64,000 nucleotides of DNA from Streptomyces sp. NBC_01231. Its GTDB lineage: Bacteria > Actinomycetota > Actinomycetes > Streptomycetales > Streptomycetaceae. A program made the position numbers and the translations under genes. Location: contig CP108521.1 of NCBI GenBank assembly GCA_035999765.1, forward strand, positions 7,006,001 through 7,070,000, written 5' to 3'. The notes under the pieces are model-generated. The model was not told where the DNA came from. It ran no database searches and worked only from the letters and a program-made list of their open reading frames with translations. Of this stretch, positions 12,891 to 36,166 are shown one piece after another; position 1 is the stretch's first letter, and every line of letters begins with the position of its first letter.

Positions 12891-13448
12891 TCAGGCGTCC
12901 GCGGCCCACTCCCGCAGGGCGGCCTTGCTCGCGAAGTTCGCCACGTTCTTGTCCAGCGGATCGTCGGTGTACTGGTGGAAGCGCCACTTCGCCTTGATGC
13001 GGGGCTTGCCGGCCGTGACGTAGTCGGCAATCCACAGGCCGTCACCGGCGTACGACGTGTCGTCCACATTGAGCCAGTAGCTGCGGTTGCAGTACAGGAT
13101 GACCCGGTTGTTCGGCCGCAGTGCCCTGACCTTCCGGATGAAGCTGTCCTTCTCCGCGTTGCTCGCGTGCGTGCCCTCCCCGGTCGTCTCCCAGTCGACG
13201 GCGAGGATGTCGCCCGCCTTCTCGGGGGCGTGTTTGACGAAGTGCTCCGCCTGGGCGGTGAGGTTGCCCGGCCAGAGGAAGTGGTAGAAGCCGACGACCA
13301 GGCCGGCGTCACGGCCGTGTTTCGTCTGGGCGGCGAGTCTCGGGTTGACGTACGAACGGCCCTCCGTCGCCTTGATGAAGGCGAAGGAGAGGCCGTCCGT
13401 GCCGTAGGACGAGGACTGGTACGCGCTGACGTCTATGCCACGCAGCAT
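12891..13448 (-). CDS. Glycoside hydrolase family 25 (muramidase-like) protein
   Basis: 185 aa, close to a bare GH25 catalytic barrel. Visible motifs are the N-terminal G-I-D-V-S-A-Y-Q, F-A-F-I-K-A-T-E-G, and the catalytic acidic pair in A-V-D-W-E. Members cleave the MurNAc-GlcNAc bond in peptidoglycan. There is no signal peptide or cell-wall-binding repeat, unlike secreted Streptomyces lysozymes, so it either uses another export route or acts inside the cell. AGGGAG lies 5 bases before ATG 13448. A run of ten G residues (13468-13477) follows upstream and is prone to sequencing error, but it lies outside the gene. Confidence 0.85.
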   Translation of the reverse strand: MLRGIDVSAYQSSSYGTDGLSFAFIKATEGRSYVNPRLAAQTKHGRDAGLVVGFYHFLWPGNLTAQAEHFVKHAPEKAGDILAVDWETTGEGTHASNAEKDSFIRKVRALRPNNRVILYCNRSYWLNVDDTSYAGDGLWIADYVTAGKPRIKAKWRFHQYTDDPLDKNVANFASKAALREWAADA

Positions 13449-13619: not shown

Positions 13620-14789
13620 TCAGATGCCGCGGGCCGCGAAGGCGATGAACTGGGTCACCTGGCGTGCGGCGAAGTTGTCGTCGGAGACCAGGACGACGGT
13701 GCGGCGGCCGTCGGGGAGGCGGGGGCCGAGGGTGATGCCCTCGACGTTGTCGACTCGGGTCAGCCCGGGGACGTCGGACAGGTCGGTCACGAGCGTCTTG
13801 CGGACCGGCTGCACGGGGTGCGCGGAGGTGTCGGTGAGGGAGTCGCGGCCGAGGACGTCGGTGGCGCCGTGGAGGTCGACCAGATAGACGCGGGCCTTCC
13901 AGTTGTTGTCGCTGTAGATCGAGGCGCGCTCGAGGACCAGGAAACGGTCGTCACCGAGGGCCACGATGTCGCTGACGCCGTTGGTGTCGGTGCTGCCCTC
14001 CGGTGGCGTGGCGAACAGCGGTTCCAGGGGGTAGGCGTACTGGGCCAGTGGCAGTCCGGTGCGTGCGTCGTGGACGGTGACGCGGGTGAGCGCGCCGTGC
14101 TCGGGGGTGGGGTCGTCGCCGTCCTGGTAGAGGGGGTCCTCCATGGCGGTGACGATCCGCCGCCCGTCCGGGGTGAAGGTGACTCCTTCGAGGGTCTGGT
14201 TCTTGCGGGGGCCGAACTCCTGGGAGTTCATGTGCAGTTGCGGTGGCAGCGGGAGCTGTCCGGTGGAGGCGCCGGTCGTGGTGGCGCGGCGGATCCAGGG
14301 ATCGCCGAGGAGGGCGGGCCCGTCGGACGGGACGATGCGCTCGCCCTCGCTCGTCCAGGCCAGGCTGCCGTCGCGCGGGTCCACGGCGATGCCCTCCGGG
14401 TCGGGTGCCACGGTGGAGGTGGCGGTCGAGGTCGGGGGGAAGGCGGTGCCGTCCGGCCGGCGCCACGCTTGGGTGCCGGTGAGTTCGACGCCGGTGAGGG
14501 CGCCGTCGGCGACGTCGACGTGGGCGGTGTAGAAACGGGCGGGGCCGGTCTGCGACCGGTCGTCGCTGATCACGTAGTACGTGCCGGTCCTCGCGTCGTA
14601 GCTGATGGCCGACAGGCCACCGACGGTGGTGCCCTGGAAGGCCATCGCGCCGGGCAGCTCGCGCTCCCCGAGGAAGTCCAGCCGTACGCCGCTGTCGTGT
14701 GCGGAGGCCGGGGTGCCGACGAGGGCGGGGAGGACGGCGAGGACGACTGCGGAGGCGATGATCCGGGCGCGTGCGGCTCGGACGCTCAT
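13620..14789 (-). CDS. Secreted esterase-like/phytase-like protein, last gene of the nucleoside operon
   Basis: 389 aa with a typical Sec signal (cleavage after T-P-A-S-A) and a phytase-like (esterase-like activity of phytase) propeller domain. Recognisable segments include G-G-L-S-A-I-S-Y-D, D-P-E-G-I-A-V-D-P-R-D-G-S, and N-V-E-G-I-T-L-G-P near the end. Family members are linked to calcium-dependent phosphoester cleavage, though most are untested. The ATG overlaps the stop of the upstream ABC permease (ATGA), so it is made with the nucleoside importer. A role in freeing nucleosides from external nucleotides would fit, as an inference from context. Confidence 0.82.
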   Translation of the reverse strand: MSVRAARARIIASAVVLAVLPALVGTPASAHDSGVRLDFLGERELPGAMAFQGTTVGGLSAISYDARTGTYYVISDDRSQTGPARFYTAHVDVADGALTGVELTGTQAWRRPDGTAFPPTSTATSTVAPDPEGIAVDPRDGSLAWTSEGERIVPSDGPALLGDPWIRRATTTGASTGQLPLPPQLHMNSQEFGPRKNQTLEGVTFTPDGRRIVTAMEDPLYQDGDDPTPEHGALTRVTVHDARTGLPLAQYAYPLEPLFATPPEGSTDTNGVSDIVALGDDRFLVLERASIYSDNNWKARVYLVDLHGATDVLGRDSLTDTSAHPVQPVRKTLVTDLSDVPGLTRVDNVEGITLGPRLPDGRRTVVLVSDDNFAARQVTQFIAFAARGI

Positions 14790-15748
14790 GTGGTCTCCAA
14801 GGTGGGCAGGGCGGGCGGTGAGGTGGGCGCGGTAGCGGTGCGTGCCGCGCTACGGCGGCGCCAGGCGAAGAACGCCAGCGCCAGCAGGGTGAAGACGTAC
14901 GGGATCGCGGAGACCAGCTGGGACGGGATGTCGAGGTTGCCGAGCTGGACGGCGAGTGCCTCCGCGGCGCCGAAGCCGAGCGCGGCCAGGAACACGCCCC
15001 AGGGACGGAGGGCGCCGAGGAAGACGGCGGCCAGCGCGATGTAGCCGCGGCCGGCGGTCATGCCGGTGACGAAGAAGGACACGGCGCCCATGCTCAGGAA
15101 CACTCCGGACGCCCCGGCCAGCGCGCCGCTGAGCGCGAGGGCGCGGAACTGGACCCGGTGGACGTGAATGCCGGTCGAGCGTGCCGCCTCGGGGTGCTCG
15201 CCGACCGCGCGCAGGTGGAAGCCGAACCGGGCCCGGTACAGCAGCCAGGCGACCGCCGGGGTGGTGGCCAGGGCGGCCCAGGTCAGCACGTTCTGCCCGC
15301 TGAGCACCGCGCCGAGGCCGGGAACGTCCTCGATCAGGGGCAGCCGGACCGAGGGCAGGGCGCCGCTGTGCAGTCGGCTGGTCCCGCCCTTGTCGCCGAG
15401 CAGCGCGTACACGGTGTACGCGGTCGCGCCCGCCGCCAGGAGGTTGAGGCCGATGCCCGCGATGATGGCGTCCGCGCCGAGATACAGGTGCAGCACGCCG
15501 AGCAGCAGCGCGAGCAGCGCACCGGCGGCGATCCCGCAGGCGGCTCCGGCCCACACCGAGCCGCTGTACCCGGCGACCAGCGCGCCCGTGCAGGCGGCGG
15601 CCAGCATCGAGCCCTCCAGGGCGATGTTGGGCACCCCGGCCCGCTCGGCGAGCAGCCCGCCGAGGGCGGCGAGGACGTATGGCGTCGACACCCCGAGGAT
15701 CGCCGCGAGGAATCCGGTGCTGAGCACCACGTCGAGGACGGGACCCAT
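14786..15748 (-). CDS. Nucleoside-type ABC transporter permease (second subunit)
   Basis: 320 aa, about eight to nine membrane segments, of the branched-chain/nucleoside permease family. The Glu-Gly motif P-N-I-A-L-E-G-S-M-L near residue 41 is typical. It pairs with the upstream permease to form the membrane channel of a BMP-type purine nucleoside importer. Its ATG (15748-15746) overlaps the upstream permease's TGA by one base (TGATG), and its own stop overlaps the phytase-like gene's start. Confidence 0.9.
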   Translation of the reverse strand: MGPVLDVVLSTGFLAAILGVSTPYVLAALGGLLAERAGVPNIALEGSMLAAACTGALVAGYSGSVWAGAACGIAAGALLALLLGVLHLYLGADAIIAGIGLNLLAAGATAYTVYALLGDKGGTSRLHSGALPSVRLPLIEDVPGLGAVLSGQNVLTWAALATTPAVAWLLYRARFGFHLRAVGEHPEAARSTGIHVHRVQFRALALSGALAGASGVFLSMGAVSFFVTGMTAGRGYIALAAVFLGALRPWGVFLAALGFGAAEALAVQLGNLDIPSQLVSAIPYVFTLLALAFFAWRRRSAARTATAPTSPPALPTLETT

Positions 15749-16881
15749 CAGCGGGCCTCCCTTCGGGCGAGGTACCGCTTGACGAGTTCGGGCAGTGCCC
15801 GGGCGGTCACGAGCAGCACGATGACCGCCTGGATGATGGTCACGGCCTCGGAGCCGACGTCGGTCTGCTGCTCCATCACGTCGCCGCCGACCCGCAGATA
15901 CGAGTAGAGGAGCGCGGCGGCGACCACCCCGACGGGGTTGTTGCGGCCCAGCAGCGCGACGACGATGCCCTCGAAGGCGAGGCCGCCGGCCATGTCGGGC
16001 TGGAGTCCGCCGTAGATCCCGAGCGCGAGGTGCGCTCCGGCGAGGCCGGCCAGCGCGCCGCCGATGACGAAGCTCCACTCGATGGTGCGGGGCACGTCGA
16101 GGCCGCCGAACCGGGCGAAGTCCGGGTTGGATCCGGTCATGCGGATGCGGTAGCCGAGCGGGGTCCGGGCGAGCAGGAACCAGACGGCGGCGGCCACCGC
16201 GAGCATGCCGAAGAGGCCGATGTTGGCCTGGTCCAGGGGGACGCCGAAGAAGTCGGAGAGGAGCGGCAGCGCCGAGTCGGGGCGTACCGGGGCGGACTGT
16301 ACGGCGGTGCTGCCGGGTGCCTTGAGGTGGTCGGTGAGGAGATAGTCGAAGACCCGCACGACCACGGCGTTCAGCATCAGCGTCGCGACGATCTCGTTGG
16401 CGCCGAGGCGGGCCTTCATCACCCCCGGGACCGCGCCCAGCGCGCCTCCGGCGAGGGCGGCGGCGCCCAGCGGCACCAGGACGGCGGCGACGGGCGGCAG
16501 AGGGAGGTTGATCGCCACCAGGGCGCTCGCCAGAGCGCCGGCGTACACCTGGCCCTCCGCGCCGAGGCTGATCTGCCGGGCCCGGAAGGGGATCGCGACG
16601 GACAGGCCGAGCAGCGACAGGGTGGTGGCGTCGGCGAGCCAGCGGCCGATCCGGGGGGTGCGCTCCAACGGGCCGGTGAGCAGGGCGTTCAGCGCGCCGG
16701 TGGCGTCCTTGCCGGTGGCCAGGACGACCAGGAAGGCGATGAGGACGGCGACGGCGACGGTCAGTACCGTCATGGTCAGCTCGACGACCACCGCACGGCG
16801 CCGGGCGGCCAGGAACTCCCTGCGGCCCTGCGTCTCGGGCCGCCTCTGCTGTTCCGCCGCCGGTTCCAGGGTCGAGGTCAT
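15748..16881 (-). CDS. Nucleoside-type ABC transporter permease (first subunit)
   Basis: 377 aa with a cytoplasmic N-terminal tail and about nine to ten membrane helices. It has the family segment I-S-L-G-A-E-G-Q-V-Y-A-G and the EAA-like loop around A-R-L-G-A-N-E-I-V-A-T-L-M. It belongs with the ATPase, the second permease and the BMP lipoprotein in one importer. Start ATG 16881 overlaps the ATPase stop by four bases (ATGA), giving coupled translation and likely equal subunit supply. Confidence 0.9.
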   Translation of the reverse strand: MTSTLEPAAEQQRRPETQGRREFLAARRRAVVVELTMTVLTVAVAVLIAFLVVLATGKDATGALNALLTGPLERTPRIGRWLADATTLSLLGLSVAIPFRARQISLGAEGQVYAGALASALVAINLPLPPVAAVLVPLGAAALAGGALGAVPGVMKARLGANEIVATLMLNAVVVRVFDYLLTDHLKAPGSTAVQSAPVRPDSALPLLSDFFGVPLDQANIGLFGMLAVAAAVWFLLARTPLGYRIRMTGSNPDFARFGGLDVPRTIEWSFVIGGALAGLAGAHLALGIYGGLQPDMAGGLAFEGIVVALLGRNNPVGVVAAALLYSYLRVGGDVMEQQTDVGSEAVTIIQAVIVLLVTARALPELVKRYLARREAR

Positions 16882-18512
16882 CGGACACCTGCCGTGATCC
16901 GCTCGTCCGGGTGCCGCCGCACCCCGAGCATGTACAGGCCGGTGGTCTCCTCGGTGAGTCCGGCCGGGTCGTCGAAGCGGGCGACGAGGCGGCCGTCCTT
17001 GACGACCAGCAGCCGGTCGGACAGCGCGAGGAGTTCACCGAGGTCGGCGGAGACCAGCAGGACCGCCGCGCCCGCGTCACGGGCCTCGACGAGCCGCTCG
17101 TACATGAAGTGCATGGCACCGATGTCGACGCCCCGGGTCAGCTGCGCGGCCAGCAACAGGCGTGGCCGGGCGGACAGTTCGCGGGCGACCACGACCTTCT
17201 GCAGATTGCCGCCGGACAGCGCCCCGGCCGCCGCGTCGGGGTGCGGGGCGCGGATCGCGTAACGGCTGATCAGGTCCTCGGCCAGCTCGCGTATGCGACG
17301 GGTGTGCAGGATGCCGCGGTGGGCGATCGGGGGCCGGTCGTGGCGGTCGACGATCAGGTTGTCGGCGATGGAGCGGTCCAGGGCCGCCCCGTTGGACAGC
17401 CGGTCCTCGGGCACGTGGGCGACACCGGCGCGGCGGTGGCCCGCCGCGTCGAGGTGGGTGACGTCGATGCCGTCCACGGTGACCGAGCCCGCGGCGGGGC
17501 GGCGCAGTCCGGCGAGCAGTTCGACGAGTTCGCTCTGGCCGTTGCCCTCGACGCCCGCGAGGCCGACGATCTCACCGGCCGCGATGTCGAGGGAGACCCC
17601 GTGCACCGACGGGCCGGAGAGTCCGCGCACCCGCAGCACTCCCGCTCCGGGCCGCGCCGGGGGCTTCGGTACGTCGAGCGACATCTCCCGGCCGACCATC
17701 ATGGACGCCAGCTGCGCGGGCGTCGCCTCCTCGGTGCGCACGGTGCCGATCACCGACCCGGCGCGCATGACGGTGACCCGGTCGCTGATCTCCCGTACCT
17801 CCTTGAGCTTGTGCGAGATGAACAGCACGGTCATGCCCGAGTCGCGGAGCCTGCGGACCGCCGTGAAGAGGTCGGTGGTCTCCTGGGGGGTGAGCACGGC
17901 GGTGGGCTCGTCGAGGATCAGGATGCGGGCGCCGCGGTGCAGGGCCTTGAGGATCTCGGCGCGCTGGCGCATCCCGACGGACACCGCGTCGACCCTCGCC
18001 TTCGGGTCGACGGCGAGCCCCGCCTCCTTGGCCAGCTGGGCGGTGCGTTCGGCGGCGGCCGCGCGGTCGACCCGGCCCGCCCGGCCCGGTTCGACGCCGA
18101 GGACGACGTTCTCGGCGATGGTGAACGACGGGACCAGCATGAGGTTCTGGTGGACCATGCCCACGCCGAGGGCGATGGCGTCCTGCGGCCCGGAGAACCT
18201 GACCCGCCTGCCATGAACCCTGAGCTGCCCGGTCGACGGCTGTTCGAGCCCGTACAGAAGCTTCATCAGGGTGGACTTGCCGGCGCCGTTCTGCCCGACG
18301 ATCGCCCTGATCTCGCCGGTGGGCACCGACAGGTCGACGTCGCTGACGGCGCGGGTGCCGTTGGGGTAGGTCTTGCCGAGGCCGGTGGCCTCCAGGGCGG
18401 GCGGGGCCGCTTCCCCGGGCTTGTGCAGGGAGGCGTCGGGCTCGGCGGATCCGGCGTACTCGGCGGCTTCGCCGGGTTCGACGGGTTCGGCGGTTTCGTT
18501 GACGGGTTCCAC
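16878..18512 (-). CDS. ABC transporter ATPase with two nucleotide-binding domains (nucleoside importer)
   Basis: 544 aa, RbsA/NupA-like double ATPase. Domain 1 (about residues 35-270) has Walker A G-Q-N-G-A-G-K-S, signature V-S-V-G-M and Walker B I-L-I-L-D-E-P-T-A-V-L. Domain 2 has the degenerate Walker A G-V-E-G-N-G-Q-S usual in this family, signature L-S-G-G-N-L-Q-K, and a Walker B reading L-A-A-Q-L-T-R-G-V-D where Pro is usual in place of Leu. GTG 18512 is chosen for the GAGGA 6 bases upstream. The first 35 residues are a Glu/Pro/Ala-rich tail. It starts 16 bp after the BMP lipoprotein. Confidence 0.9.
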   Translation of the reverse strand: MEPVNETAEPVEPGEAAEYAGSAEPDASLHKPGEAAPPALEATGLGKTYPNGTRAVSDVDLSVPTGEIRAIVGQNGAGKSTLMKLLYGLEQPSTGQLRVHGRRVRFSGPQDAIALGVGMVHQNLMLVPSFTIAENVVLGVEPGRAGRVDRAAAAERTAQLAKEAGLAVDPKARVDAVSVGMRQRAEILKALHRGARILILDEPTAVLTPQETTDLFTAVRRLRDSGMTVLFISHKLKEVREISDRVTVMRAGSVIGTVRTEEATPAQLASMMVGREMSLDVPKPPARPGAGVLRVRGLSGPSVHGVSLDIAAGEIVGLAGVEGNGQSELVELLAGLRRPAAGSVTVDGIDVTHLDAAGHRRAGVAHVPEDRLSNGAALDRSIADNLIVDRHDRPPIAHRGILHTRRIRELAEDLISRYAIRAPHPDAAAGALSGGNLQKVVVARELSARPRLLLAAQLTRGVDIGAMHFMYERLVEARDAGAAVLLVSADLGELLALSDRLLVVKDGRLVARFDDPAGLTEETTGLYMLGVRRHPDERITAGVR

Positions 18513-18528
18513 CAGTGTTCCTCGGAGC

Positions 18529-19623
18529 TCAGAAGGCCGAAGGGACCTTGACGGCACCGGACTTGACCTTCGCGGCCTGCGCCTTGAGGTCGGCGCGCAC
18601 GGCGGCGGGGACGAGCTTGTCGAAGTTGGCGTTGTCCACGTAGCCCACGCCGTCCTCGGCCAGACCCACGGCCGCGGGCTTCCCATACGCCAGCGTGCCG
18701 GCCGTGTTCGCCTTGGCCGCCAGATAGAGGGCGTTGCCGGCGTTCTTGAGGATGGAGGTGACGACGGTCTGCCGCTGGTCGGCGTCGGTGAGCGTCTTGT
18801 ACTGGTCGGAGTCGACCCCGAAGGCGTACCGCTTGGCGGCCACGGCCGACTCGAAGGCCCCGAGGCCCGAGGATCCGGCGACGGGCCACACCAGTTCGGC
18901 CCCCTGCCCGTACATCGCCGAGGCGATCTGCTTGCCCTTGGCCGGGTCGCCGAACGGGTTGTCGCCGCCGACGTACTGCACGAGGACACCGGAGGACGGA
19001 TTTCCGCCCGCCGCCTTGAAGCCCGCCTTGAAGCCGACGACGAAGTCCTCGATGACCGGTATCTTCACACCGCCGATCACGCCCACCTTGGCGTTTCCGG
19101 TACTGCCGGGAAGGGCCTTGGCGGCGACCAGTTTGTCGGCGAGGAATCCGGCCAGATAGGCGGCCTCGTTCTGCTTGAAAGTGACGGAGTAGACGTTCGC
19201 GCACTTGTTGGAACAGCCGCTCTTTCCCGTGTAGTCGACGGATCCGTCGAAGAGCCAGAACTTCTTGTCCGGGTACTCCGGGGCCAGTTTGGAGACGAAG
19301 CCGACGGTGTCGACGGTGCCCGCGGCGAGCACGTCGTAGTCGTCGCCGGCGGCCGCGTCCTCGAAACCGGAGGACCACTTGGTGCGGTCACTTCCCAGCT
19401 CGACGACCTTCAGGCTGTAGCCGAGGTCCTTCTCCGTCTTCTTCAGGCCCGCGTACGCCGAGTCGAAGAAGGAACGGTCGCCGAGATTTCCGTTGATGAC
19501 GAACTTGATTCTCGGCATTCCGGATTTCCCCGACTGGGCGGAGTCCGTGGCGGTCGAGGCACCGCATCCGGCGAGGGTGAGGGAGAGCGCCGCGACGCTC
19601 CCCAGAATTCTGATCTTGTGCAT
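18529..19623 (-). CDS. BMP-family nucleoside-binding lipoprotein
   Basis: 364-aa substrate-binding protein. The lipoprotein signal ends L-A-G-C. The mature part has the two-lobe BmpA/PnrA fold with G-N-L-G-D-R-S-F-F-D, E-A-A-Y-L-A-G-F-L-A and V-G-V-I-G-G. Characterised PnrA-type proteins bind purine nucleosides, which matches the adjacent purine nucleoside phosphorylase. Start ATG 19623. The 99-bp gap to deoD holds a LacI-type operator, so the importer can be made from its own regulated promoter as well as by read-through. Confidence 0.92.
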   Translation of the reverse strand: MHKIRILGSVAALSLTLAGCGASTATDSAQSGKSGMPRIKFVINGNLGDRSFFDSAYAGLKKTEKDLGYSLKVVELGSDRTKWSSGFEDAAAGDDYDVLAAGTVDTVGFVSKLAPEYPDKKFWLFDGSVDYTGKSGCSNKCANVYSVTFKQNEAAYLAGFLADKLVAAKALPGSTGNAKVGVIGGVKIPVIEDFVVGFKAGFKAAGGNPSSGVLVQYVGGDNPFGDPAKGKQIASAMYGQGAELVWPVAGSSGLGAFESAVAAKRYAFGVDSDQYKTLTDADQRQTVVTSILKNAGNALYLAAKANTAGTLAYGKPAAVGLAEDGVGYVDNANFDKLVPAAVRADLKAQAAKVKSGAVKVPSAF

Positions 19624-19709
19624 CGTCCGGATTCTCTTTCTGCAGTGGGATCTTCAGCGGGGGATTCAGTGGGGGACGTTCTTCGCCATTGGCCGAAAGG
19701 TATGCAATG

Positions 19710-19721
19710 CAAAACGTTTTG
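19710..19721. promoter_or_regulatory. LacI-type operator 2 (CAAAACGTTTTG)
   Basis: Perfect 12-bp palindrome with the central CG typical of LacI-family sites, between deoD and the BMP lipoprotein gene. It is identical to the site at 23721-23732 in front of the operon. No convincing -10/-35 pair was found around it. Confidence 0.8.
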
Positions 19722-19722
19722 G

Positions 19723-20466
19723 CTATGGGCTTCTGTGTGAGGAGATTGTTTCCGTGATCAGCGCGGTGGCCGCGATGGTGACGGCACGGTCGAAGTCCGT
19801 CTCGCGCTCGGCCGGAGTGAGTGCCTCCGCGCGGCGCACGTGATCGCTGACCGTCAGCACGGCGAGCGCACGACCGCCCTCGGCGGCGGCGGTCGCGTAC
19901 AGGCCCGCGGCCTCCATCTCCACGGCCAGCGTGCCGTGCGCCTCCAGCCGCTCGAACAGCGCCGGACGCTCCAGATAGAAGTGGTCGGTGGTGAACACGG
20001 GCCCGATGTGCACGCGCGGTCCGGATCCGCCCCCGGTCGCGGCGGCCCGTGCGGCGGCCCCGGCCAGGTCGAAGGAGGCGACGTGGCTCAGGTGCGCCCC
20101 GTCGATACGGTGGCCGCTCATCGCGGAGTCCGTGTGGGCGGCGGTGGCCACGACGACGTCACGCAGACCCACCGAGGCGGGGATGCCGCCCGCGGTGCCG
20201 ACCCGCGCGATGCTGCGCACCCCGTAGTGCCGGAAGAGCTCGGTGGCGTAGATGGTCACCGACGGCATCCCCATGCCGGAGGCCAGGACGGACAGCGGCA
20301 CGCCCCGGTACGTTCCGGTGTACCCCTCGATGCCGCGCACGTCGGTGACCAGGCGCGCGTCCTCGAGGACCGTCTCGGCGATGCGGCGTGCCCGGCGTGG
20401 GTCGCCGGGCATCAGCACGTCCGGTGCGAAGTCGCCGACGGCGGCCGAGATATGGGGGGTGACCAT
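19723..20466 (-). CDS. deoD: Purine nucleoside phosphorylase, DeoD type
   Basis: 247 aa. It catalyses phosphorolysis of purine (deoxy)nucleosides to base and (deoxy)ribose 1-phosphate in the cytoplasm. It matches the hexameric DeoD family throughout: V-L-M-P-G-D-P-R-R-A, R-V-G-T-A-G-G, the substrate-binding V-E-M-E-A-A-G-L-Y, and the catalytic Asp in V-S-D-H-V-R. ATG 20466 overlaps the upstream gene's stop (TGATG). It stands between the amidotransferase-like gene and the importer, so imported nucleosides can be cleaved at once. Confidence 0.93.
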   Translation of the reverse strand: MVTPHISAAVGDFAPDVLMPGDPRRARRIAETVLEDARLVTDVRGIEGYTGTYRGVPLSVLASGMGMPSVTIYATELFRHYGVRSIARVGTAGGIPASVGLRDVVVATAAHTDSAMSGHRIDGAHLSHVASFDLAGAAARAAATGGGSGPRVHIGPVFTTDHFYLERPALFERLEAHGTLAVEMEAAGLYATAAAEGGRALAVLTVSDHVRRAEALTPAERETDFDRAVTIAATALITETISSHRSP

Positions 20467-21227
20467 CAGGCCACCTCCTCCACCGGGGCCTGCGCCAGCC
20501 AGCGCACCAGCCGGTCCCACAGCTCGGCGTAGCCCTTCCACTCGAGAAAGCCGGGCGGGGCCCAGTGGGGCGCCAGGTCGGACGTGAAGGCGGCCGATCT
20601 TCCCGCGCCGTAGCCGCCGACCGCCAACAGCGGATGGCCCGCGCACTCGACGAGCAGTTCCGACCCGTCCCGCAGCGTCACCTCGTTGAGCCCGAGCAGA
20701 TCCGGCCAGGTCCCGTCCAGCCCGTCGACCACCGCGTGGCGGGCGACGACTCGCGGTGCGGCCCCGGCGGGCAGCTCCACCCGGTCGTCCCGGTCGTGCA
20801 GAGAGACCGGCAGTGCCGCCGCCAGCGGTGTGCGCCCCCAGCGGGCCTTGGCGTCGATCCCGGTGAAGGTGAGGTAGCCGCCCACCATCAACAGGCCTCC
20901 GCCGCGCTCGACGTGGGCCCGCAGCAGCTCGGTCCGGTCGGGCGAGGGCACCGAGTGCGTGAAGGTCTCCGGCGTGAGCTGGAAACTGTTGGCCCCGACA
21001 TCGCTGATCACGACGACGTCGTAGGGCTCCAGTCCTTCGGCCGTGGTGGGCAGCCTGCTGGGTATCTCGTGCGACGGGACGTAGGTCACCGTGTGGCCCC
21101 GGCCGCGCAGCGCGTCGAGGAAGACCTGGGCGCCCTCGACGTACTCGGAGGTGAAGAAGGAGTCGAACCCCTTCTGGTGGACGGATTGGGTGAACCAGGA
21201 CTCACCCACGACGAGGACATGGGGCAT
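20466..21227 (-). CDS. Glutamine-amidotransferase-like (ThuA/DJ-1 superfamily) protein
   Basis: 253 aa with a class I glutamine-amidotransferase-like fold: V-L-V-V-G-E-S-W-F at the N-terminus, V-V-I-S-D-V-G-A-N-S in the middle, and the nucleophile-elbow region L-L-M-V-G-G-Y-L-T-F, where the expected Cys is replaced by Gly. So it is unlikely to be a glutaminase. Relatives in this superfamily occur in sugar-utilisation operons with unknown roles. ATG 21227 is used; ATG 21245 is possible. It is coupled to deoD by a one-base overlap and belongs to the nucleoside operon. Confidence 0.7.
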   Translation of the reverse strand: MPHVLVVGESWFTQSVHQKGFDSFFTSEYVEGAQVFLDALRGRGHTVTYVPSHEIPSRLPTTAEGLEPYDVVVISDVGANSFQLTPETFTHSVPSPDRTELLRAHVERGGGLLMVGGYLTFTGIDAKARWGRTPLAAALPVSLHDRDDRVELPAGAAPRVVARHAVVDGLDGTWPDLLGLNEVTLRDGSELLVECAGHPLLAVGGYGAGRSAAFTSDLAPHWAPPGFLEWKGYAELWDRLVRWLAQAPVEEVA

Positions 21228-21292
21228 CGCTGCACGGCCTTTCATGTGAAGTGTGCGGAGGAGGAGGAGGGGGAGGGGGCGGCAGCGCCCGG

Positions 21293-22351
21293 TCAGGGGG
21301 TCGGGCTCACGGGAGCCGTGCTGGCGCGGACCTTCAGCCGGACCGGCAGGATGTGCCGGGAGGCAGGGGGCACCTCGTCCCGGTGGACGTAGCTCAGCAG
21401 CTGGGCGCCGGCCGTGCGGCCGACGTCGTAGGCGGGCTGGTGGACGGTGGTGAGACGGGGGTGGATGCGGGAGGCGAGCATGATGTCGTCGAAGCCCGCC
21501 ACCGAGACGTCGTCGGGGACGCGCAGGCCCGCGTCCTCCAGGGCGGCGACCGCGCCGAGGGCCATCAGGTCGTTGGCGGCGAACACCGCGGTGAAGCGGC
21601 GTCGGCCGCCGTCCTCCAGGGCCGCGGCGACCAGGCTGTAGCCGGACCGCTCGACGAAGGCGCCCTCGACCTCGGTGACCCCCGCGTCGCCGAACGCCTC
21701 CCGGAAACCGGCGATCCGCTCCAGGCTGCTGACCAGGTCCACCGGGCCGCTGATCGCCAGCACCCGGCGGTGGTCCAACTCCCGCAGGTGCTGCCCGATC
21801 AGCCGGCCTCCCGCACGGTGGTCCGCGGTGACGAGGATGGTCTGTTCCAGCAGGTCGGGAACGACCTCGTCGGCCAGGGCGATGGGGAACCGCCCGAGCA
21901 GCGACGCCAGCCGGCCACGGGACGGCGGCGACCCGGAGGCGTACACCATGCCGTCGATGAACCGCCCGCGCAGCATCTCCAGATAGCGGTCCTCGCGGTC
22001 CGGGTCGAACTCGGTGTTGCACAGGATGACCCCGTAGCCCAGGTCGTGGGCGGCGTCGTCGACACCCTTGGCCAGTTCGGCGAAGAACTGGTTGGTGATG
22101 TCGGGCACCAGCAGGCCTATGACGTTGGTCGAACCGGCCTGGAGATTGCGGGCCGTCGAGGCCGGTACGTAGCCGAGTCGGCTGACGACCGCGCGGACCC
22201 GCTCGGCCGTGTCGTCGGCGACCGGCCGGTTGCCGCTCAGCACGTGCGACACCGTGGTCGGGCTCACCCGGGCGGCGGCCGCCACGTCCTTGATCGACGC
22301 GGGCCGCCGCACCCGGCGGCGCCCCACGTCCTGGTCCTGCTCACGGGTCAT
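21293..22351 (-). CDS. LacI-family transcriptional regulator of the nucleoside operon
   Basis: 352 aa. The helix-turn-helix and hinge are clear: [21 protein letters not shown] (about residues 20-40), followed by the periplasmic-binding-like sensor domain. Its likely ligand is a purine nucleoside or ribose-derived product, by context. It probably binds the two identical CAAAACGTTTTG palindromes at 19710 and 23721, the form expected of LacI proteins. It overlaps the end of the amidohydrolase gene by 11 bp and so is the second gene of the operon it should repress, giving negative autoregulation. Confidence 0.9.
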
Positions 22352-23684
22352 AGTGCTGGACCGCCCTGCCGTGCGAGGTGTCCAGCAGTGCGGGCACGCG
22401 CGCCTCGATCTCGGCCAGCAGCCCCGGCAGGTCCACCGTCAGCAGCCGGCCGTCACGCACCACGACCCGCCCGTCCACCACGACCGTGCGCACATCACTG
22501 GCCCGCACGCTGTAGACCAGGGCCGCCACCGGGTCGTGCACCGGCCGGCAGTGCGCCCCGCTCAGATCGACCAGCACGATGTCCGCGGCCCGGCCCGGCG
22601 CCAGCGCGCCGATCCGGTCCCCGAGTCCGAGCGCCCGGGCCCCGCCGCGCGTGGCCAGCCGGACCGTGTCGGAGACGGTCATCCAGGTGGCGTCCCGCTC
22701 GGCCTGCTTCTGGGTCAACGCGACCAGCCGCATCGCCTCCCACACGTCCAGCGTGTTGTGCCCGGCCGCCCCGTCGGTCCCGGCCCCGACGGCGACGCCG
22801 GCGTCCAGCAGGCTCCGCACCGGCGTGAGCGGACGCAGGGCGTGTTTCAGATACACCTTCGGGCAGCAGGCCACGCCCGTACGGTCCCCGACCGCCTCCA
22901 GCACCGGCAGGTCGGCCGGTGTGATGCCGCACCCGTGCGCGATCAGCGCCCCGGCGTCCAGCACCCCGGTCCGCTCCAGCACCCCGATGGGGGTGACGCC
23001 GCGCCGCGCCAGGCTCGACTCGGTCTGCTCCAGGTGCTCGGCGGCGTGGATGTGGATCCGTACGCCCAGGTCCCGGGCCAGCTCCGCGACTCGGACCAGG
23101 TCCGCGTCCTCGACCGTGTACGGCGCGTGCGGGCCAAGCGACGCGGTGACCCGTCCGTCGCCCGTGCCGTGCAGGGCGGCGGCGGTCTCGGCGCTCTCCT
23201 CCAGGGCCGCGCGACCCCGGCTGCTGAAGTACGTCGGCGCTATGTCGGCCCGGATTCCGGTACGGACGACGGCGTCGGCGATCCGCTCGGCGTCGAAGTA
23301 GTGGTCGGCGAACGTGGTCACCCCGCTGAGCAGCATCTCCGCACAGGCCAGCTCCGCGCCGAGGCCGATGTCGGCAGGGGTGAGGTTGACCTCCATGGGC
23401 CACACCCGCTCGTTGAACCAGGCCTCGACACCCACGTCCTCGGCGGCGCCGCGCATCAGCGTCATCGGGCCGTGCGTGTGGGCGTTCACCAGCCCGGGTA
23501 CGGCGATCAGTCCCGTTCCGTCCACGGTCTCGGCCCCGGCCGCCTGAGGCCCGGAGCCCGCCGGGCCCAGCCAGACGATCACTCCGTCCTCGACCAGGAT
23601 GTCCTGGCCCGTCTCCACTCGGCAGGGGCCCCGCTCGGGCACCACGAGCACCGAGCAGGACGTCACGATCAGTCGGCGCGTCAT
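22341..23684 (-). CDS. Amidohydrolase of the MTA/SAH/guanine deaminase group
   Basis: 447 aa, metal-dependent amidohydrolase of the TrzA/AtzA/MtaD type. Metal ligands and signatures seen: N-A-H-T-H-G-P-M near residue 68, I-H-I-H-A-A-E-H, I-A-H-G-C-G, and A-G-T-D-G-A-A-G-H-N-T-L-D. By family and by its place ahead of deoD and a nucleoside importer, it most likely deaminates adenosine, a purine base or a related nucleoside. GGAAGGA stands 6 bases before ATG 23684. It is the first gene of the LacI-controlled operon. Confidence 0.85.
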   Translation of the reverse strand: MTRRLIVTSCSVLVVPERGPCRVETGQDILVEDGVIVWLGPAGSGPQAAGAETVDGTGLIAVPGLVNAHTHGPMTLMRGAAEDVGVEAWFNERVWPMEVNLTPADIGLGAELACAEMLLSGVTTFADHYFDAERIADAVVRTGIRADIAPTYFSSRGRAALEESAETAAALHGTGDGRVTASLGPHAPYTVEDADLVRVAELARDLGVRIHIHAAEHLEQTESSLARRGVTPIGVLERTGVLDAGALIAHGCGITPADLPVLEAVGDRTGVACCPKVYLKHALRPLTPVRSLLDAGVAVGAGTDGAAGHNTLDVWEAMRLVALTQKQAERDATWMTVSDTVRLATRGGARALGLGDRIGALAPGRAADIVLVDLSGAHCRPVHDPVAALVYSVRASDVRTVVVDGRVVVRDGRLLTVDLPGLLAEIEARVPALLDTSHGRAVQHYDP

Positions 23685-23708
23685 GCGGAATCCTTCCGTC
23701 CGAACCGG

Positions 23709-23737
23709 ACGCTAAGGATCCAAAACGTTTTGCACAA
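23709..23737 (-). promoter_or_regulatory. Operon promoter with the operator in its spacer
   Basis: Minus strand: -35 TTGTGC (23737-23732), 17-bp spacer, -10 TAGCGT (23714-23709). The LacI-type palindrome fills most of the spacer, so a bound repressor would exclude RNA polymerase. The predicted start lies about 20 bp before the amidohydrolase ATG. Confidence 0.65.
23721..23732. promoter_or_regulatory. LacI-type operator 1 (CAAAACGTTTTG)
   Basis: Perfect 12-bp palindrome between the -35 and -10 of the nucleoside-operon promoter, identical to the site at 19710-19721. The A/T core stands out sharply in this G+C-rich sequence. Confidence 0.85.
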
Positions 23738-35726: not shown

Positions 35727-35772
35727 CGGACGGTCGTCTCCCAAGGCATGACGGCGAGGTCGTTCCTCCCCA

Positions 35773-35985
35773 TCTGTCATCGGAACCTGAGAGGTTCGTC
35801 AGGACCCCGCGAAGCGGTGATCATGACTTGCACCTTGGGTGGAGCCACTGTCGCAGCGGCCCGCTTTTCAGATGTGCCTCGCCCGCGCGGTAACGGGGCC
35901 TGAGAGATTCAAGGGAGGGACTTGCTCCTTCGGCGCCCGGGCACCCGTACGAGGGACGTACGACCCGGAACTCTCCCGCGCGGAT
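35773..35985 (-). ncRNA. Tandem glycine riboswitch upstream of gcvT
   Basis: Two aptamers on the minus strand. The first (about 35985-35882) shows GCGCGGGAGAG, then GGCGCCGAAGGAGCAA and AATCTCTCAGGC, closing with CCGCGCGGG, the classic glycine-aptamer order. The second (about 35856-35773) has TGGCTCCACC, GGTGCAAGTC and ACCTCTCAGG and is less canonical in its first half. Glycine binding normally switches such operons on, and the downstream genes consume glycine. The expression platform must lie in the 46 bases before gcvT. Boundaries are approximate. Confidence 0.88.
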
Positions 35986-36166
35986 TCAAGCGGCCGGTAT
36001 GCAGTTGGCGCCGACATCATTGCACGCATCGGTCGAGCGCGGCAGGGCCGCATCTGTAACCGGCTTGTGGCAGGACGAGCACGAAAACACGAGACACCGC
36101 GCATTACCTTCTCTTTACACTCGACGGGGAGGGAACTCGTGACCACCCCAGGGGAGGACGACCACG

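What the first reader, a model, noticed from the sequence alone, without database searches (positions are those of the whole stretch)
13620..23737. LacI-controlled purine-nucleoside scavenging operon that includes a secreted phytase-like protein
Nine minus-strand genes, mostly overlapping by 1 to 11 bp, run amidohydrolase, LacI, amidotransferase-like, deoD, BMP lipoprotein, ATPase, two permeases, phytase-like. All parts of a pathway can be read: an outside phosphoester enzyme, importer, phosphorylase and deaminase. Linking a phytase-like exoenzyme by translational overlap to a BMP importer, with an amidotransferase-like protein lacking its Cys, is not a layout I know. Order and overlaps are seen; the family roles are established; the joint pathway is inference.
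Basis: partly seen in the sequence, partly recalled or inferred. Interest (0 to 1): 0.75.

Follow-up and report, generated by a model that had tools for sequence, protein, structure and literature searches.

The report
LacI-controlled nucleotide and nucleoside scavenging operon
In a Streptomyces genome nine neighbouring genes, apparently switched by one dedicated repressor, look like a kit for feeding on purine nucleosides and probably nucleotides: a secreted enzyme-like protein, an importer and two nucleoside-processing enzymes; related strains carry the secreted part fused to a nucleotide phosphatase, which hints at what it does.

Summary
In detail: nine minus-strand genes (23684-13620), five of eight junctions overlapping. 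Three gaps remain, and one explains the layout. A perfect palindrome, CAAAACGTTTTG, lies before the amidohydrolase and again in the 99-bp deoD-BMP gap, and at no other place found in the 11.3-Mb genome. In relatives both sites sit before a TAnnnT box at fixed spacing. So this is probably one LacI regulon with two promoters: amidohydrolase-lacI-PF07090-deoD, and BMP importer plus phytase-like gene.

Of 21 Streptomyces operons, 19 have a visible end: 16 carry an intact PF13449 (phytase-like) gene next after the importer, 2 a remnant, 1 a displaced copy. Two PF13449 lineages fill the slot; in five operons it is a PF13449 + 5'-nucleotidase fusion. In S. phyllanthi a fusion gene sits apart behind its own copy of the operator. 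This supports an outside dephosphorylation step, but the window's PF13449 protein lacks the nucleotidase and its own activity is unproven. PF07090 has Tyr, not the amidotransferase Cys, in 81 of 81 sequences and recurs beside BMP importers and nucleoside hydrolases elsewhere.

New variant of a known kind.

The parts
23720..23733 (-). Operator 1: palindrome TGCAAAACGTTTTG before the amidohydrolase, in a promoter-like pair (TTGTGC - 17 nt - TAGCGT)
   Evidence: TAnnnT six bases on in 20 of 20 A-type sites counted
22341..23684 (-). Amidohydrolase of the MTA/SAH/adenosine-deaminase type (PF01979), 447 aa
   Evidence: NAHTH 67, HIHAAE 211, GTDG 302
21293..22351 (-). LacI-family regulator, 352 aa; 11-bp overlap with the amidohydrolase gene
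20466..21227 (-). PF07090 'GATase1-like' protein without the amidotransferase Cys (Tyr118), 253 aa
19723..20466 (-). DeoD-type purine-nucleoside phosphorylase, 247 aa
   Evidence: (above cut-offs of NF004489 and TIGR00107)
19709..19722 (-). Operator 2: same palindrome in the 99-bp deoD-BMP gap, followed by TACCTT seven bases on (putative second promoter)
   Evidence: TAnnnT seven bases on in 21 of 21 B-type sites counted
18529..19623 (-). BMP/PnrA-type substrate-binding lipoprotein (PF02608), lipobox LAGC
16878..18512 (-). Two-domain ABC ATPase (GTG start); second Walker B region reads LLLAAQ
15748..16881 (-). ABC permease 1 (PF02653)
14786..15748 (-). ABC permease 2 (PF02653)
13620..14789 (-). 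PF13449 'phytase-like' beta-propeller with a signal-peptide-like start, 389 aa, 4-bp overlap with permease 2

Best explanation
This is a dedicated LacI regulon, with two putative promoters on one gene run, for scavenging purine nucleosides and probably nucleotides. LacI binds CAAAACGTTTTG in the spacer of both promoters and blocks (1) amidohydrolase-lacI-PF07090-deoD and (2) the BMP importer genes plus the phytase-like gene. When an inducer (a nucleoside or a breakdown product) appears, both units are expressed. Outside the cell the secreted PF13449 propeller, alone or fused to a 5'-nucleotidase in sister lineages, helps turn phosphorylated nucleotides into nucleosides. The BMP lipoprotein and ABC importer bring these in, the amidohydrolase deaminates adenosine-like compounds, DeoD splits them to base and ribose-1-phosphate, and PF07090 acts on one of these products. 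Shown by sequence: gene order, the palindromes and their conservation, family membership, conservation of the PF13449 slot, and the fusions. Inferred: LacI binding and repression, the promoters, the substrates, secretion, the PF13449 activity, and the PF07090 step.
For: Families; motifs of DeoD and amidohydrolase kept. Operator: two places in the whole own genome at up to 1 mismatch of the 14-mer. In 13 genomes the 12-mer occurs at two places in 10, at one in 2 drafts and at four in one; the reversed control gave 0 in all 13. TAnnnT at fixed spacing follows 41 of 41 sites counted (two sites before G049's second LacI were left out of that count and lack it). PF13449 after permease 2: of 19 operons 16 intact, 2 remnants, 1 displaced. 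Fusion with a 5'-nucleotidase in the slot in 5 operons, and apart from the importer behind a perfect operator in S. phyllanthi. Two PF13449 clades fill the slot (p-AU 0.0055). Purifying selection on PF13449 with or without the nucleotidase (dN/dS 0.13-0.37). PF07090 lies within about 10 kb of both a BMP protein and a nucleoside hydrolase in 25 of 69 other loci.
Against: The window's own PF13449 protein has no nucleotidase domain, and three fusion-type genes lack it, so the nucleotidase is not always needed. Of 24 loci of PF13449 relatives elsewhere, 0 have a BMP importer, DeoD or PF07090 nearby. The gene is a remnant in 2 of 19 operons, so it is dispensable. The amidohydrolase is below the cut-off of all 25 NCBIfam models shown of 45 matched. 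The strict sigma-70 scan found no promoter, and the two operators before G049's second LacI lack the TAnnnT box. In G049 the fusion's own operator copy has two changes. The group of the AU test was named after an earlier tree had been seen, and the fusion clade sits on a long branch.
Confidence: 0.66

Rival explanations
1. The PF13449 gene is a passenger: a secreted propeller of unrelated function that happens to sit behind the importer and is read through.
For: 0 of 24 loci of PF13449 relatives elsewhere have a BMP importer, DeoD or PF07090 nearby. The gene is a remnant in 2 of 19 operons. The overlap is not conserved.
Against: Two distinct PF13449 clades occupy the slot. The S. phyllanthi copy lies apart behind the same operator and box. 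G049 has a displaced copy behind an altered copy of the first promoter. dN/dS is 0.22-0.30 in six comparisons with the window's gene.
Confidence: 0.2
2. The importer and LacI serve another ligand (a modified nucleoside, deoxynucleoside, pterin or a B6-like compound) and the purine enzymes are broad-range relatives.
For: Best NCBIfam matches of the ATPase and both permeases are putative B6 importer subunits, though far below cut-off. The amidohydrolase family has many substrates.
Against: DeoD is above its cut-offs. BMP relatives with solved structures found by sequence include BmpD and TmpC, which I recall as nucleoside binders. PF07090 clusters elsewhere often hold a nucleoside hydrolase and a BMP protein (25 of 69 loci).
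Confidence: 0.2
3. The regulon serves phosphate rather than carbon or nitrogen supply: the PF13449 protein (or fusion) frees phosphate and the importer clears the nucleoside left over.
For: A protein annotated as atypical alkaline phosphatase (esterase-like activity of phytase family) is strongly induced by phosphate limitation in Nodularia (PMC9846622, passages seen).
Against: Phosphate control was not looked for here; the shared operator points to a regulator of its own.
Confidence: 0.15

Closest known systems
BMP/PnrA-type nucleoside ABC importers (TmpC/PnrA; Lactococcus BmpA-NupABC, the latter recalled)
   Same: PF02608 lipoprotein, two-domain ATPase, two PF02653 permeases in that order
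   Different: Here under a LacI with two operator sites, with deoD, a deaminase-type amidohydrolase, PF07090 and a PF13449 protein in the same regulon
LacI/GalR-family regulators RbsR, PurR, CytR
   Same: LacI HTH plus periplasmic-binding domain; these are the nearest profiles; CG-centred palindrome
   Different: Below all their cut-offs; the operator was found only at this locus in the own genome
PF07090 proteins STM1381 (3SOZ) and STM3548 (2GK3); ThuA-like proteins (1T0B)
   Different: No function for them in anything I saw; here the protein sits in a nucleoside regulon
UshA-type secreted 5'-nucleotidases
   Same: PF00149 + PF02872 with NDFHG, GNHEF and GHTH motifs in the sister lineage's fusion protein
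   Different: Fused behind a PF13449 propeller; absent from the window's own copy
Beta-propeller phytases (PF02333, accession recalled)
   Same: Propeller fold with invariant acidic residues
   Different: Different Pfam family (PF13449); no sequence match to a phytase structure; nearest folds listed are YjiK and glutaminyl cyclase

Membership tests
BMP-type nucleoside ABC importer | PF02608 lipoprotein with lipobox, tandem ATPase, two PF02653 permeases | tested here: met
   (LAGC)
BMP-type nucleoside ABC importer | Binds and imports nucleosides | not testable with these tools
   needs a binding assay; sequence relatives BmpD and TmpC
DeoD purine-nucleoside phosphorylase | Score above curated model and catalytic residues kept | tested here: met
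   NF004489 261.2 vs 230, TIGR00107 239 vs 232.25; SDH and AER motifs aligned to DeoD chains (residue roles recalled)
MTA/SAH or 5'-deoxyadenosine deaminase (named equivalogs) | Score above a curated NCBIfam model | tested here: not met
   best 326.9 bits vs 540; all 25 models shown of 45 are below cut-off; it belongs to PF01979 and keeps the metal motifs
Class I glutamine amidotransferase | Catalytic Cys in the nucleophile elbow | tested here: not met
   Tyr118 in 81 of 81 PF07090 sequences; the elbow position is assigned by eye
PF07090 GATase1-like | Pfam gathering score | tested here: met
   306.1 vs 27 bits
LacI-family local repressor | LacI HTH + binding-protein domain, and palindromic CG-centred sites at the operon's promoters | tested here: met
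LacI-family local repressor | Binding and ligand-released repression | not testable with these tools
   needs EMSA and reporter assays
Beta-propeller phytase | Match to the beta-propeller phytase Pfam family (PF02333, recalled) | tested here: not met
   only PF13449 and a below-cut-off PF08884 matched
Beta-propeller phytase | Six-bladed phytase fold | tested here: inconclusive
PF13449 phytase-like | Pfam gathering score | tested here: met
   277.6 vs 27.6 bits
Secreted 5'-nucleotidase | PF00149 + PF02872 in the operon's own protein | tested here: not met
   absent from the window protein; present in relatives' fusions. Two PF02872 genes lie elsewhere in the own genome

The most novel reading that the evidence does not exclude
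The PF13449 propeller is itself an extracellular nucleotide phosphoesterase (or nucleotide-capturing partner of one) that was recruited twice into the same LacI regulon and can replace the 5'-nucleotidase it is fused to in sister strains; and the Cys-less PF07090 protein is an undescribed enzyme of nucleoside breakdown, used across several phyla after either DeoD or a nucleoside hydrolase.
Probability: 0.3. Interest if true: 0.72.

Novelty: new variant of a known kind. Interest (0 to 1): 0.52.

Why it matters
PF13449 and PF07090 are families whose names (phytase, amidotransferase) rest on little that I could find. A small regulon, with an operator found nowhere else in the window's genome, ties both to purine nucleosides and makes their functions directly testable. 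If true, it describes a complete outside-to-inside nucleotide scavenging route in Streptomyces, with a domain fusion as a natural clue.

Tried and rejected
Phytase by fold: sequence search of solved structures gave no phytase (its five weak rows were WD-repeat designs and an RNase P protein). Foldseek (50 rows listed) gave generic propellers with low TM-scores; VIA-align listed YjiK and glutaminyl cyclase first and no phytase among 50 rows, which excludes nothing. The promoter scan with strict consensus found 0 promoters; the promoter reading rests on conserved spacing instead, whose offsets were chosen after seeing the sequences. No terminator-like site was reported in the deoD-BMP gap, so read-through from promoter 1 stays possible.

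Literature: searches for phytase-like + BMP + Streptomyces terms, PF07090, the PF13449 name and accession, nucleoside ABC transporter + LacI, STM1381, nucleoside hydrolase + BMP + amidotransferase terms, phytase-like domain + nucleotidase and atypical alkaline phosphatase showed no title or abstract describing this operon in the listings seen. Most subscription journals are not in that library. Passages of two papers were read; the rest are listings only.

Rejected: that PF13449 relatives generally travel with nucleoside importers (0 of 24 loci; three of these loci lie within 2 kb of a contig start). An early tree held one row translated in a wrong frame; it was rebuilt and only the second is used. 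In one search the stop of permease 2 was misplaced for some loci (the match had run past the true stop); those values are not used.
Full report
Observation. Families: PF01979 amidohydrolase, LacI, PF07090, DeoD, PF02608 BMP lipoprotein, tandem ABC ATPase, two PF02653 permeases, PF13449. Five of eight junctions overlap (11, 1, 4, 1, 4 bp) and three are gaps of 65, 99 and 16 bp.

Two operators. The palindrome CAAAACGTTTTG occurs before the amidohydrolase (23721-23732) and in the 99-bp deoD-BMP gap (19710-19721). In the whole own genome the 14-mer TGCAAAACGTTTTG with up to one mismatch is found only at these two places; the third listed match is a shifted register at the first place. In 13 genomes searched for the 12-mer (own, G049, and 11 genomes of relatives), 10 have exactly two places, the drafts G108 and G110 have one, and G049 has four; the pattern read backwards gave none in any of the 13. 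In one search I counted 41 sites in the window and 21 loci, sorted into two types by the bases before the palindrome. TAnnnT follows six bases on in 20 of 20 of the first type and seven bases on in 21 of 21 of the second; these include the S. phyllanthi fusion gene's site and one site with a single change (L045). The offsets were chosen after seeing the sequences, the loci are related, and two further sites, before G049's second LacI, were left out and do not have the box. The palindrome thus lies in the spacer of a promoter-like pair, a classical place for steric repression, though the strict consensus scan reported no promoter. I conclude that the run is one regulon with two LacI-controlled promoters, the second serving importer and PF13449 gene.

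Neighbourhood. A scan of the species-genome collection with the PF07090 protein found 145 loci and kept the best 80. Eleven are the same Streptomyces operon (L036-L045, L051). A second search of 392 Streptomyces genomes (own included) found 24 with a match at E 1e-60 or better, 11 of them at 74% identity or more. That makes 21 operons. In two (L043, L045) the contig ends before the slot. Of the other 19, 8 have an intact single-domain PF13449 gene next (window, L036, L037, L038, L039, L042, L051, L170), 5 a PF13449 + 5'-nucleotidase fusion (L041, L172, L174, L176, L177), 3 a fusion-type PF13449 without the nucleotidase (L040, L171, L175), 2 a remnant (L044, L173), and in G049 the fusion gene lies about 6.5 kb before the amidohydrolase on the other strand. 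Pfam domains were scanned for L041, L123, L128 and L040; the other fusions rest on tblastn and reading frames.

The fusion. L041's protein (995 aa) carries PF13449, a short dockerin-like match, PF00149 and PF02872, with NDFHG, GNHEF and GHTH motifs. In S. phyllanthi the gene lies on a 9.3-kb contig without the importer, with a perfect operator 135 bp before its ATG. In G049 the fusion gene has a copy of the first promoter with two changes in the palindrome, about 260 bp before its ATG. A protein search listed 120 of 602 relatives; 26 of the 120 carry both PF13449 and PF02872 (P0121-P0144, P0148, P0164).

Two recruitments. In a 30-row tree the single-domain operon proteins and the fusion-type ones form separate clades, each with 100/100 support; holding them as one clade is rejected (p-AU 0.0055). 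The group was chosen after an earlier tree had been seen, and the fusion clade is on a long branch. Either the slot was filled twice or one type displaced the other. Both types are under purifying selection, also where the nucleotidase is missing: dN/dS 0.22-0.30 in 6 comparisons with the window's gene, 0.13-0.37 in 21 pairs for the PF13449 part of the fusion type, 0.12-0.16 in 6 pairs for the nucleotidase part. So the propeller itself is worth keeping.

Against. PF13449 relatives outside the operon are not beside importers of this kind: 0 of 6 Streptomyces paralogues and 0 of 18 loci from other genera have a BMP importer, DeoD or PF07090 in the stretch fetched. None of the 69 other PF07090 loci matched the window's PF13449 protein (tblastn, so a distant PF13449 could be missed), nor did the 9 that I fetched of 13 Streptomyces loci with divergent PF07090. 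The association therefore looks like a Streptomyces invention, not an ancient one. The 4-bp overlap with the permease is seen in 4 of 8 single-domain operons.

How it most likely works, and how sure. Nucleoside import and cleavage under LacI: about 0.8. A nucleotide-dephosphorylating role of the PF13449 slot: about 0.55. Phytate as the substrate: about 0.1. These are my estimates.

Verdict. The finding is real, better organised than described (two operators), conserved within Streptomyces, and partly explained by a fusion. It is a new variant of a known kind: a nucleoside importer operon extended outward to nucleotides.

Noticed in passing
window 35764-35988 (-): Two adjacent glycine riboswitch aptamers (Rfam RF00504) before a gcvT-like gene and a glyA-like gene (named by eye); an ordinary arrangement.
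   Followed up: partly
window 12891-13448 (-): GH25 muramidase (PF01183) about 170 bp downstream of the phytase-like gene; no operator copy between them.
   Followed up: partly
L125/L126 (G049:C1:9357795-9358998): A second LacI (71%) with two operators 21 bp apart before it, about 10 kb from the operon: a duplicated regulator, probably of the same specificity.
   Followed up: partly
L178-L181, L184-L186: In Streptomyces with divergent PF07090 (45-54%), 7 of 9 loci fetched have a phosphotriesterase-like gene close by, with LacI and an M20-like peptidase: a different PF07090 guild (labels by similarity to queries named by eye).
   Followed up: no
L070, L078, L083 and other Paenibacillus loci: PF07090 follows LacI, a PfkB-like kinase, a sugar-type ATPase and an M20-like peptidase: another recurrent layout.
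   Followed up: no
window 16878-18512 (-): The second nucleotide-binding domain of the ATPase has LLLAAQ where a Walker B would end in DE; possibly one degenerate ATP site.
   Followed up: no
L124 (G084:C202:177196-177366): A 57-codon end piece of the single-domain PF13449 gene (79%) with none of the nine operon genes otherwise matched in 17 kb: a relic.
   Followed up: partly
G000:C1:3887967-3888767: A second, distant PF13449 gene in the own genome; similar ones occur in other Streptomyces.
   Followed up: partly
L051 14312-15447: Permease 1 matches in two frames in S. stelliscabiei (assembly error or broken gene).
   Followed up: no
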